From an uncultured Clostridia bacterium (GTDB lineage Bacteria; Bacillota; Clostridia; Oscillospirales; Acutalibacteraceae): a stretch of DNA of 64,000 nucleotides. The notes under the pieces were generated by a model. The model saw only the letters and a program-made list of their open reading frames with translations, did not search any database and was not told the origin of the DNA. Within the stretch, counting starts at the first letter, position 1, and every line of letters starts with the position of its first letter. Location: positions 1 through 64,000 of the forward strand of contig CAMVEX010000006.1 in assembly GCA_947166625.1 (NCBI GenBank). Direction: 5' to 3'. Of the stretch, positions 2,814 through 15,957 are shown piece by piece. Position numbers and translations under genes: made by a program.

Positions 2814-3554
2814 TCATCTGTCATTATAATCATAAAAAAGTTCATCAAGGAGTTTATCCAGATCCTTTTTATTGCCGAATGCGGCTTTTACGAAAGCAAA
2901 GATATTTTTGAACATAAGCTTAAAATATAGCCAATCGCCGAGGTCATCGTATTTGCGAGTTGAATTGATAAGATAATTCTCTTTCAGAACGGTGTATTTC
3001 AGCCCGGATTTCTTACCGTATTTTTTGATTTTTTTCGCGGTATCTGCATCCTCCATCGCCTTTTTTTCGGTGAATCCGCCGACGGCGTCAAAGGTTGATT
3101 TCTTTGCCCAGAAGATACCGCAGTAAAGCCCCGTCAATCCAAAAGAAACGCGGCACATTATGTCGTTGCACCAAAGAGGAAAAGAGTACCGTTCAAACCT
3201 TATCGGCGCGCCGCCGCCTATGTATTTACCGCTTTCAAGCAGTGATACCGCTTCTTTTATCGTGCCGGGGGTCATACGGTTGTCGCAATCAATGGTCAGG
3301 ATGATTTCTCCCTGCGCCGATTTGATTCCGTCATTACGTACTTTTGCTATACATCTGTCTTCATTAAAAATAACCTTTGCACCCGCGCGCTTCGCAAGAA
3401 AGGCGGTGCTGTCGGTGCAGCGGTTGCAGACAACAGTTATTTCAACTTCGCCGCCGTAAACCGCCGACGCATCATTGATGGATTTAATACATCTTTCAAC
3501 ATATTTTTCTTCATTATGAGCGGGAATTATGACCGAAACAGACGGTATATTCAT
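2814..3554 (-). CDS. Glycosyltransferase family 2
   Basis: MNIPSVSVIIPAHNEEKYVERCIKSI N-terminus; ATG at 3554 preceded by AGGAGA; ORF 2814..3593. Confidence 0.85.
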   Translation of the reverse strand: MNIPSVSVIIPAHNEEKYVERCIKSINDASAVYGGEVEITVVCNRCTDSTAFLAKRAGAKVIFNEDRCIAKVRNDGIKSAQGEIILTIDCDNRMTPGTIKEAVSLLESGKYIGGGAPIRFERYSFPLWCNDIMCRVSFGLTGLYCGIFWAKKSTFDAVGGFTEKKAMEDADTAKKIKKYGKKSGLKYTVLKENYLINSTRKYDDLGDWLYFKLMFKNIFAFVKAAFGNKKDLDKLLDELFYDYNDR

Positions 3555-3622
3555 GAAAATTCTCCTGATATTATTACTCGGAGGGACCTGCAAAAACAGA
3601 TCCCTCCGTGATTAAGAAAACA

Positions 3623-13457: not shown

Positions 13458-14876
13458 ATGGAGATAAAGAAAAACGATATAATAGACCTCGAGATCGGCA
13501 ACTGCACCCTTGACGGCAGCGGTGTGGGAAGATATGATTCGCTCGCGGTTTTTGTGCCTCATACCGCGCGGGGAGACAGGATAAAGGCTCACATACTCAA
13601 AGTCAAAAAGAACTGCGCATTTGCCAAAATCGAAGAGATACTCACGCCTTCGCCGGACAGAACGGAATGCCCCTGCCCGGTATATCTTAAATGCGGAGGA
13701 TGCTCATTCGGCCATATAAAATACGAAACAGAAACGGCGATAAAAGAAAATCATGTGCGCGAATGCTTCAGGAGGATAGCGGGAGCGGAGCCCGAAACAG
13801 AGCCTGTTATCGCCGCCGAAAAAATCTACCGCTACAGAAACAAGGCGCAGTTTCCCGTTGAAATAAACGGGGAGGAAATCAAGACGGGTTTTTACGCCTC
13901 TCATTCACACAGGGTGATCGACTGCCCCGGCTGTCTGCTTCAGCCCGAGGAGTTTGAGGGAATAATCAACATAATTCGCGGGCACATTCTCAAATTCTCA
14001 ATCACCTCTTATGATGAGACAAGCGGCCGGGGGCTTCTCAGGCACATTTATCTGCGCAAAGGGACAAAGAGCGGAGAGATAATGGTCTGCCTCGTGATAA
14101 ACGGCGATTCATTCCCCGGGGAAGAAGAACTCTGCGCACGGCTAAGCGGAAAATTCCCCGAGATCAAAAGCATCGTGATCAACATCAACAAAGACAAAAC
14201 AAATGTGATCCTCGGCAAAAAATGCCGCACGATATACGGTGACGGATACATAAGCGATTATCTCTGCTCTCTCAAATTCCGCATCTCTCCCCTCTCTTTT
14301 TATCAGGTAAACAGAGATCAGGCGGAGAGACTTTATGAAAAAGCGGCGGAATACGCAGGGCTGACGGGGAACGAAACTCTGCTTGACCTCTATTGCGGAA
14401 CGGGCACGATAGGTCTGACCATGGCGCACAGGGTAAAAAAGCTCATCGGAGTGGAGATAATCGGGCAGGCTGTCAAAGACGCGGAACTGAACGCGAAAGA
14501 GAACGGAATAAAAAATGCGAGATTTATCTGCGCAGACGCCGCCGAAGCGGCACGGACTCTCAAGGATGAAGGAATAAGCCCCGATGTGATAATCCTCGAT
14601 CCGCCGAGAAAAGGATGCTCGGCGGAGCTTATCAATACTGTTTCACAGATGGCGCCCGACAGGATAGTTTATGTTTCGTGCGACCCTGCCACGCTCGCCC
14701 GAGATTGCAAAATTTTTGCCGGGCTCGGATATCGGGCGGTCAAAGCCGCCCCGGCGGATCTTTTCCCGAGAACGGGCCATGTCGAGACTGTATGCTGCTT
14801 GTACCACCAAAAGAAGGACTTTATTTCCGTACCGTATGAACCGAAGGATGACGGTTATATGAACCTACTGAAATAA
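13458..14876 (+). CDS. rlmD: 23S rRNA (uracil-C5)-methyltransferase RlmD/RumA family
   Basis: TRAM-like N-term, CPVYLKCGGCSFGHI Fe-S cysteines, LLDLYCGTGTIGL, ILDPPRKGC, VYVSCDPATLARD. Confidence 0.93.
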   Translation: MEIKKNDIIDLEIGNCTLDGSGVGRYDSLAVFVPHTARGDRIKAHILKVKKNCAFAKIEEILTPSPDRTECPCPVYLKCGGCSFGHIKYETETAIKENHVRECFRRIAGAEPETEPVIAAEKIYRYRNKAQFPVEINGEEIKTGFYASHSHRVIDCPGCLLQPEEFEGIINIIRGHILKFSITSYDETSGRGLLRHIYLRKGTKSGEIMVCLVINGDSFPGEEELCARLSGKFPEIKSIVININKDKTNVILGKKCRTIYGDGYISDYLCSLKFRISPLSFYQVNRDQAERLYEKAAEYAGLTGNETLLDLYCGTGTIGLTMAHRVKKLIGVEIIGQAVKDAELNAKENGIKNARFICADAAEAARTLKDEGISPDVIILDPPRKGCSAELINTVSQMAPDRIVYVSCDPATLARDCKIFAGLGYRAVKAAPADLFPRTGHVETVCCLYHQKKDFISVPYEPKDDGYMNLLK

Positions 14877-15479: not shown

Positions 15480-15503
15480 CAAAGCCTGCATGTCGATCTG
15501 TTT

Positions 15504-15543
15504 CTCAATTAGCAGTTAATTGAGACAGTATGCTTACTGTCTC
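15504..15543. repeat. Two overlapping, mutually exclusive hairpins
   Basis: CTCAATTA-gcagt-TAATTGAG (15504-15524) and GAGACAGTA-tgct-TACTGTCTC (15522-15543). Confidence 0.75.
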
Positions 15544-15550
15544 GACAATA

Positions 15551-15700
15551 AATTGCGCCTGTCGTCGCATGAATTGCACTTCGTGCATGAATTGACCTTC
15601 GGTCATGAATTGCCCTGCGGGGCATAAGGCGCAATTCAATTCACGGAGCGCAGCGAGAAATCATGGCGAAGCCAAATCATGACGCGTAGCGTCAATTCAT
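15551..15700 (+). repeat. Hairpin array/structured intergenic element with 18-nt period
   Basis: P1 AATTGCGCCT(15551-15560)/AGGCGCAATT(15627-15636); ATGAATTG at 15569, 15587, 15605; stems TGCACttcGTGCA, TGACCttcGGTCA, TGCCCtgcgGGGCA, TGGCgaaGCCA, TGACGCgtaGCGTCA. Confidence 0.8.
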
Positions 15701-15717
15701 TCCAAAGGAGCGATGTT

Positions 15718-15930
15718 ATGGCAGACAACCAACTTGTAATACCGTCAAAGTCATTTGCAGTTGTCATTATAAATCTTTGTGAAAAGCTGTAGGAACGCAA
15801 AAAGGCAACTCCGTACATCAGCAGGCTCATAAACAAGAAGGACGGCATCGTTAACAAGGTATTCGTCGAAATGCTTGAAAAGCTGGGCTGCGATATCCAG
15901 ATTACATATGTAAAGAAGGAAACAATCTGA
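15718..15930 (+). pseudogene. Small ~70-codon ORF interrupted by in-frame TAG (probable pseudogene)
   Basis: RBS aaaggag, ATG 15718: MADNQLVIPSKSFAVVIINLCEKL*ERKKATPYISRLINKKDGIVNKVFVEMLEKLGCDIQITYVKKETI; TAG at 15790-15792. Confidence 0.65.
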
Positions 15931-15957
15931 CAAACCGGGATTTGTGGGGGAAATAGT

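What the first reader, a model, noticed from the sequence alone, without database searches (positions are those of the whole stretch)
15551..15700. 18-nt-periodic hairpin array with one-to-three alternative pairing upstream of a small ORF
Three consecutive 18-nt units, each ATGAATTG followed by a small hairpin (TGCACttcGTGCA, TGACCttcGGTCA, TGCCCtgcgGGGCA). The stems differ but stay complementary, which suggests selection for RNA or cruciform structure. The block is closed by a perfect 10-bp helix (AATTGCGCCT/AGGCGCAATT). Two more hairpins follow (TGGCgaaGCCA, TGACGCgtaGCGTCA), then CAATTCAT at 15693-15700, the exact complement of all three ATGAATTG copies, ending 3 nt before the aaaggag RBS. 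Three identical arms competing for one anti-arm next to an RBS looks like a switch, or a mobile structured element.
Basis: partly seen in the sequence, partly recalled or inferred. Interest (0 to 1): 0.78.

Follow-up and report, generated by a model that had tools for sequence, protein, structure and literature searches.

The report
Hairpin array of mobile S23p gene
The row of small hairpins is one decayed copy of a scattered DNA element that sits in front of genes for a small four-helix protein of unknown function (S23p/IVP), and the way these elements are built and placed suggests that the protein helps them move.

Summary
The hairpin block is real, but it is longer and more symmetric than described: about 160 bp (15545-15703), with four direct linkers (ATGAATTG, the first degenerate), then inverted linkers (CAATTCAT/AAATCAT), and a hairpin between most neighbours. 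It is one copy of a dispersed family in Clostridia: 13 of 60 relatives, up to 16 copies in a genome, and at least 118 stretches in the GTDB genomes. Stem covariation is very strong: 162 distinct units are 95% paired, against at most 79% when the 3' arms are re-dealt. It matches no Rfam family. The downstream 'small ORF' is the broken start of a PF05635 gene (23S rRNA intervening-sequence protein, S23p). An independent survey of PF05635 genes found the same bipartite array, with gene-specific linkers, upstream of 35 of 80 (other windows 3 of 741). Linker word and protein sequence co-diverge. Arrays sit beside hairpins: the rlmD 3'-end palindrome, or tRNA terminators (22 of 34). A few copies carry variable-length flanking duplications. 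Many copies lack the gene. Best reading: a mobile element whose array is the cis-acting part and whose only own protein is S23p. Mobility is well supported; the chemistry is unknown. The three-to-one RBS switch is not supported.

The parts
13458..14876 (+). rlmD (RumA-type 23S rRNA m5U methyltransferase); its HVETV codons at 14778-14791 (CATGTCGAGACTGT) are the motif beside which intact copies of this class sit in other genomes
   Evidence: TIGR00479 432.9 bits; motif position; 13 of 24 assessable IVP-bearing copies elsewhere follow rlmD
15489..15543 (+). 5' border: CATGTCGA remnant of the rlmD-type end (15489-15496) and palindrome GAGACAGTATGCTTACTGTCTC (15522-15543), interrupted by about 25 nt
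   Evidence: same palindrome borders the homologous copies L003, L055 and L060; stem>=9 beside 19 of 21 IVP copies, control 79 of 1000
15545..15703 (+). complete bipartite hairpin array (the element): direct linkers with hairpins, closing helix, inverted linkers with hairpins
   Evidence: alignment to ten homologous copies; dispersed family
15547..15568 (+). degenerate first direct linker AATAAATTG and decayed first hairpin GCGCCTGTCGTCGC
   Evidence: intact in homologues as AATGAATTGCGCCTGACGGCGC
15569..15623 (+). three direct linkers ATGAATTG with hairpins GCACttcGTGC, GACCttcGGTC, GCCCtgcgGGGC
15551..15560 (+). 5' strand of the closing helix AATTGCGCCT; shares bases with the first hairpin, so the two pairings are alternatives
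   Evidence: helix of >=7 bp in 95 of 117 copies with changing sequence
15627..15636 (+). 3' strand of the closing helix AGGCGCAATT
15632..15643 (+). first inverted linker(s) CAATTCAATTCA
15645..15657 (+). sequence-conserved core GGAGCGCAGCGAG (family GGAGCGNAGCGAG), not a simple hairpin
   Evidence: weak trace in some other linker classes
15659..15700 (+). inverted linkers AAATCAT, AAATCAT, CAATTCAT with hairpins GGCgaaGCC (15665-15673) and GACGCgtaGCGTC (15681-15693)
15704..15710 (+). ribosome-binding site AAAGGAG
15718..15792 (+). broken start of a PF05635 (S23p / IVP, four helix bundle) gene: 24 codons then TAG; similarity continues to about 15849
   Evidence: 61% identity over 44 codons to the G055 IVP; same truncated form in L144; intact homologues match PF05635 at 92.1 bits and TIGR02436

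Best explanation
The block is the cis-acting array of a small mobile element whose own gene encodes an S23p/IVP-family four-helix-bundle protein (PF05635); here the gene is broken and the copy is a relic. SHOWN by sequence: (1) the array is a dispersed, covarying, bipartite structure (direct linkers with hairpins, then inverted linkers with hairpins); (2) arrays of this architecture lie directly upstream of many PF05635 genes, each lineage with its own linker word that co-diverges with the protein; (3) arrays also occur without the gene, in many places, in tandem and across families; (4) they tend to sit immediately beside DNA hairpins, namely tRNA-operon terminators or the palindrome at the rlmD 3' end, and different classes occupy the same terminator in sister genomes; (5) a few copies have flanking duplications of variable length. 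INFERRED: S23p, as an oligomer, recognises its class-specific linkers and hairpins as extruded or single-stranded DNA and brings the element to hairpins exposed at replication forks or terminators, where host enzymes join and repair the ends, giving variable duplications. Gene-less arrays are then non-autonomous copies. No catalytic partner has been identified.
For: Dispersal: 13 of 60 relatives, up to 16 copies per genome, three in tandem in G055, which is in another family; 118 stretches in Clostridia genomes, with the scan stopped at its limit. Covariation: 162 distinct units, 94.7% of stem positions paired and 130 perfect, against at most 78.8% and 59 when 3' arms are re-dealt (1000 shuffles); closing helix in 95 of 117. 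Gene link: IVP gene within 400 nt downstream, same strand, in 27 of 134 copies found mostly by core DNA alone, start codon mostly 59-96 nt from the core. Reverse survey from PF05635: repeated words with >=5 copies and both orientations upstream of 35 of 80 genes, downstream 2 of 77, other windows 3 of 741, shuffles 0 of 80; all direct before all inverted in 34 of 35; hairpins also between linkers in the other classes, 75 of 116 against at most 26. Co-divergence: Mantel r = -0.60, 0 of 2000 permutations. Placement: tRNA within 450 nt upstream of 22 of 34 array-bearing IVP genes and 0 of 34 downstream; rlmD before 13 of 24 IVP copies against 3 of 104 gene-less ones; at one orthologous tRNA-Tyr terminator G158, G526 and G106 carry three different arrays and homology ends right after the terminator. 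Flanking direct repeats of >=14 nt exact in 7 of 108 copies (three are junctions of adjacent copies), 0 of 321 mismatched pairings; L061 and L073 repeat the 5' arm of a terminator, L122 a whole hairpin. Loops are T-N1-2-C in the 5' half and G-N1-2-A in the 3' half, i.e. GNA/GNNA loops on opposite strands, a DNA-hairpin-like signature.
Against: G007 (100% complete, 16 matches) has no PF05635 match, so copies persist, and perhaps spread, without the gene. No known mobilising enzyme is shared: RVT_1 is absent from G012, G020, G052 and G055, and Y1 transposase from G000, G007, G010, G030 and G055. No clean empty site was obtained for a single insertion. Only 35 of 80 surveyed IVP genes had a detected array. 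The co-divergence test is not corrected for host phylogeny. Most sequences are metagenome-assembled. S23p has no recognisable catalytic domain.
Confidence: 0.62

Rival explanations
1. The arrays are ordinary non-autonomous repeats (MITE/REPIN-like) moved by an unrelated transposase or by replication slippage at hairpins, and the S23p gene is a passenger that merely tends to be carried along.
For: Most ATGAATTG-class copies lack the gene (107 of 134); G007 has many copies and no IVP gene; S23p has no catalytic domain in Pfam.
Against: Linker word co-diverges with S23p; arrays are found upstream of S23p genes with many different linkers but almost never elsewhere in the same loci, which a passenger would not produce; no shared RT or Y1 transposase.
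Confidence: 0.2
2. The array is a stationary regulatory leader: S23p binds the hairpins in its own transcript (or the DNA) and autoregulates; scattered copies come from gene duplication and decay.
For: Fixed position upstream of the gene, co-divergence of array and protein; in the window class the array ends at the RBS.
Against: 24 of 35 surveyed arrays have a TATAAT-like box between array and gene; gene-less copies with flanking duplications at terminators; different arrays at one orthologous terminator.
Confidence: 0.1
3. One reading: three ATGAATTG arms compete in RNA for one CAATTCAT next to the RBS and so gate translation of the ORF.
For: CAATTCAT ends 3 nt before the RBS and the folding energy is unusually low; the first hairpin and the closing helix are mutually exclusive.
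Against: Four-to-four linkers, not three-to-one; the ORF is a 24-codon fragment; 107 of 134 copies have no IVP gene behind them; promoter-like boxes after the array in other classes.
Confidence: 0.04

Closest known systems
23S rRNA intervening sequences (IVS) with an S23p ORF (e.g. Coxiella, Leptospira)
   Same: Same protein family (PF05635); ORF accompanied by inverted repeats; regarded as selfish elements and long suspected to be mobile, with the ORF as a mobility component (PMC4990558)
   Different: Here most lie outside rRNA, after tRNA terminators or rlmD; the repeats form a bipartite multi-hairpin array upstream of the gene rather than one stem around it; many gene-less copies exist
REPINs and REP-associated tyrosine transposases (RAYTs)
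   Same: Short structured repeats in inverted pairs, compensatory changes in stems, class-specific co-evolution with a neighbouring single-copy gene, dispersed gene-less copies (PMC3116915)
   Different: The partner protein is a four-helix-bundle PF05635 protein, not a Y1 transposase, and Y1 genes are missing from several carrier genomes; units are 16-23 nt with four to eight linkers
MITEs and BOX elements of streptococci
   Same: Small, intergenic, modular, hairpin-forming, variable numbers of internal units (recalled from general knowledge, not compared here)
   Different: No fixed duplication size seen; linked to S23p genes; unit stems vary freely while pairing is kept
Bacterial-C (group IIC) introns
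   Same: Insertion immediately after Rho-independent terminators (PMC8919778)
   Different: No intron-encoded reverse transcriptase, and RVT_1 is absent from several carrier genomes; no match to any Rfam family, group II intron models included

Membership tests
23S rRNA IVS element with S23p | ORF of the PF05635 family | tested here: met
   Intact homologues match PF05635 at 92.1 and 86.2 bits, cut-off 33.8; window copy is a 24-codon fragment
23S rRNA IVS element with S23p | located inside the 23S rRNA gene | tested here: not met
   Window copy follows a protein gene downstream of rlmD; rRNA-located relatives were seen only in distant genomes (L264, L266, L272, L275)
REPIN/RAYT | inverted pairs of short structured repeats with compensatory changes | tested here: met
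REPIN/RAYT | associated Y1 (RAYT) transposase | tested here: not met
   PF01797 absent from G000, G007, G010, G030, G055; associated gene is PF05635
MITE of a DDE transposon | fixed-length target-site duplication | tested here: not met
   Flanking repeats of 14-19 nt exact, up to about 34 with mismatches, in the few copies where visible
group II intron (bacterial C) | intron-encoded reverse transcriptase and ribozyme domains | tested here: not met
   No Rfam match in the window; RVT_1 absent from several carriers
riboswitch or other described RNA family | match to an Rfam model | tested here: not met
   0 matches at gathering threshold in 64 kb
mobile element | presence/absence polymorphism at a defined site | tested here: inconclusive
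   Different arrays at the same tRNA-Tyr terminator in three sister genomes, but no clean filled/empty pair
mobile element | movement caught experimentally | not testable with these tools
   needs an assay or population sequencing

The most novel reading that the evidence does not exclude
S23p/IVP proteins, of unknown function since their discovery in rRNA intervening sequences, are the dedicated nucleic-acid-recognition factor of a widespread class of mobile DNA with no transposase, recombinase or reverse transcriptase of its own, which spreads by S23p binding to class-specific hairpin arrays and inserting beside DNA hairpins such as tRNA terminators with the help of host enzymes.
Probability: 0.35. 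Interest if true: 0.92.

Novelty: new variant of a known kind. Interest (0 to 1): 0.78.

Why it matters
S23p/IVP genes are common in bacteria (75 of 149 genomes of this order, up to 9 per genome) and their role is unknown; the paper read here states so and cites the old idea that the ORF was a mobility component (PMC4990558). The arrays give each S23p gene an obvious candidate substrate, with built-in specificity controls (different linker words), so the function becomes directly testable. If right, it adds a mobile-element type built on a non-catalytic protein, explains a large stock of hairpin repeats in gut Clostridia, and shows tRNA terminators as its landing sites.

Tried and rejected
Rfam match: none. 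Copies elsewhere in the window's own genome: only one clear copy; the near-exact CAATTCAATTCA hits were scattered single words. Presence in viral contigs: none. Empty sites by all-against-all flanks and by the L027 locus in 41 genomes of the genus: no clean pair, because synteny breaks. Reverse transcriptase or Y1 transposase as the shared helper: rejected, since each is absent from several carriers including G055, which lacks both but has an intact S23p gene and tandem arrays. A universal core motif GAGCGNAGCGA across linker classes: only weak, <=2 mismatches in 11 of 33 arrays against 125 of 1000 control windows. The idea that CAAATCGGGATTTG marks the 3' end of the element was not followed through: the word is enriched genome-wide and not specific. 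Literature searches for the repeat word, for S23p with repeats, for IVS mobility, and for IVP with tRNA or terminators found no description of these arrays; only open-access papers were searched.

Full report
1. The observation. The sequence at 15551-15700 is as described, with an unusually stable predicted fold (z = -3.85) and no Rfam match. The block is larger and more regular than reported. From 15545 to 15703 it consists of a degenerate direct linker AATAAATTG, three linkers ATGAATTG, then CAATTCAATTCA, two AAATCAT and a final CAATTCAT, with a small hairpin between most neighbours. Between the halves a helix AATTGCGCCT/AGGCGCAATT can close; its 5' strand overlaps the first hairpin. The core GGAGCGCAGCGAG (15645-15657) is conserved in sequence and is not a simple hairpin. 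The claimed three-to-one competition comes from overlooking the degenerate linkers.

2. A dispersed family. The own genome has one copy, but 13 of 60 relatives have copies, up to 16 in one genome and three in tandem in a genome of another family. Taking 135 copies, I cut out 322 units between consecutive linkers. The 162 distinct units have 94.7% of stem positions paired and 130 are perfect; re-dealing the 3' arms among units of the same length gave 74% on average and never more than 78.8%, with at most 59 perfect. The closing helix has at least 7 bp in 95 of 117 copies with varying sequence (AATTGCGCCT, AATTGCAACC, AATTGCC). Linker spacing is mostly 16 to 23 nt, so the 18-nt period is not a family feature.

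3. The gene behind it. The 'small ORF' at 15718 is the start of a PF05635 gene (23S rRNA intervening-sequence protein, S23p) that stops at codon 25; the same truncated form occurs in L144. In other genomes an intact gene of about 120 codons follows: 27 of 134 copies have the gene within 400 nt, in the same orientation. These proteins pass the PF05635 and TIGR02436 cut-offs and match the solved structure 2RLD.

4. The reverse test. I then searched for PF05635 itself in 149 genomes of the order (75 positive, up to 9 genes each), took the DNA around about 90 genes and looked for any repeated 7-mer, without assuming ATGAATTG. Upstream of 35 of 80 genes there is a word present at least five times and in both orientations; the same holds for 2 of 77 downstream windows, 3 of 741 other windows of the same loci, and 0 of 80 shuffles. 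In 34 of 35 all direct copies precede all inverted ones. The words differ: GTGAAGT, GTGATGT, ATGAAAT, GTGAAAT, AATGAAG, ATGATAT, GTGATAT, AGCTAAA and others. Hairpins lie between the linkers in these classes too (75 of 116 units, at most 26 in shuffles). Linker similarity and protein identity go together (r = -0.60, 0 of 2000 permutations). This is what co-evolving recognition would give; host phylogeny was not corrected for.

5. Where the elements sit. In the ATGAATTG class 13 of 24 assessable gene-bearing copies lie right after the 3' end of rlmD, against 3 of 104 gene-less copies. There the element is preceded by a palindrome whose left arm is the rlmD codons HVETV and whose right arm follows their synonymous changes. 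A stem of at least 9 bp precedes the first linker in 19 of 21 gene-bearing and 58 of 106 gene-less copies, against 79 of 1000 random positions. In the survey, 22 of 34 array-bearing genes have a tRNA gene, of many different isotypes, within 450 nt upstream and none downstream, commonly with an intrinsic terminator in between. At one orthologous tRNA-Tyr terminator, G158 has an ATGAAAT-class array with gene, G526 a GTGAAGT-class array with gene, and G106 a chimeric gene-less array; similarity stops just past the terminator, at TTTTCAACTAA.

6. Signs of movement. Flanking direct repeats of at least 14 nt occur in 7 of 108 copies and in none of 321 mismatched pairings. Three are junctions of adjacent copies; the others (L061 19 nt, L088 18 nt, L026 15 nt, L122 14 nt exact within a repeated 34-nt hairpin) and L073 (25 nt with two mismatches) are dispersed copies, most of them at or next to terminator-like sequences. 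The lengths vary, which does not fit a cut-and-paste transposase with a fixed stagger. No clean filled/empty pair was found.

7. Mechanism. The hairpin loops read T-N1-2-C in the 5' half and G-N1-2-A in the 3' half, i.e. GNA or GNNA loops on opposite strands. From general knowledge, GNA loops are exceptionally stable in DNA; many of the four-base ones (GTCA, GTTA) are not the RNA GNRA type. DNA energy parameters give a larger z-score (-5.1) than RNA parameters (-3.4) for the window copy, against simple base shuffles. In 24 of 35 surveyed arrays a TATAAT-like box follows the array, so the array is probably not in the gene's mRNA there. I therefore favour a DNA-level role: S23p recognises its own class of linkers and hairpins and directs the element to other DNA hairpins, with joining done by host enzymes. 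The protein-DNA step is inferred. Against it stands G007, with many copies and no S23p gene. Reverse transcriptase and Y1 transposase are not shared by the carriers.

8. Comparison. The closest known things are the S23p-bearing intervening sequences of 23S rRNA, whose function and mode of spread are unknown (PMC4990558), and the REPIN/RAYT pairs of Pseudomonas (PMC3116915), which the system resembles in logic but not in its protein. In distant genomes of the phylum, PF05635 genes are often flanked on both sides by inverted short repeats, several of them inside 23S rRNA genes, which links the two. Insertion beside terminators recalls bacterial-C group II introns (PMC8919778), without their machinery. 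I found no description of these arrays in the open-access literature searched.

9. Limits. Most sequences are metagenome-assembled; the first set was selected for an exact core; survey genes were the better-scoring PF05635 matches; copies are related to one another; and the own copy is a relic.

Noticed in passing
L188 (own genome G000:C5:82400-87500), about 1537-1880 and 3245-3590: Two PF05635 genes, one with an internal TAA, sit between genes that read like a type IV pilus operon (ATPase, inner-membrane protein, prepilin), flanked by AATTAGC/GCTAATT short repeats: probably two more insertions of another class.
   Followed up: partly
window 14778-14791; L065 3' part; L032 5' part: The rlmD 3' end (CATGTSGARACNGT, protein HVETV) looks like a recombination hotspot: L065 has a second copy of an rlmD end downstream of other genes, and L032 has the motif after a different gene.
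   Followed up: partly
L264, L266, L272, L275, L253: PF05635 genes inside 23S rRNA genes (classical IVS) and other PF05635 genes in distant members of the phylum are flanked on both sides by inverted arms of short repeats (e.g. AGTGGAG upstream, CACTCCC downstream in L253).
   Followed up: partly
own genome, e.g. window 15930-15945: The near-palindrome CAAATCGGGATTTG (up to 2 mismatches) occurs 64 times against 8 for the reversed control; meaning unknown.
   Followed up: no
L333 (G106:C32): Chimeric array that changes linker class from GTGAAGT to GTGAAAT midway, with no S23p gene directly behind it: recombination between arrays.
   Followed up: no
L006 (G030:C6): The array stands on both sides of the S23p gene as nearly identical direct copies (about 99.5%), the second one in front of an unrelated gene: a cassette-like arrangement.
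   Followed up: no
window 15793-15927 and L144, L055 downstream parts: The tail behind the broken S23p start (YISRLINKKDGIVNKVFVEMLEKLGCDIQITYVKKETI) recurs behind other copies and may be the end of a helix-turn-helix-like protein: a fused fragment.
   Followed up: no
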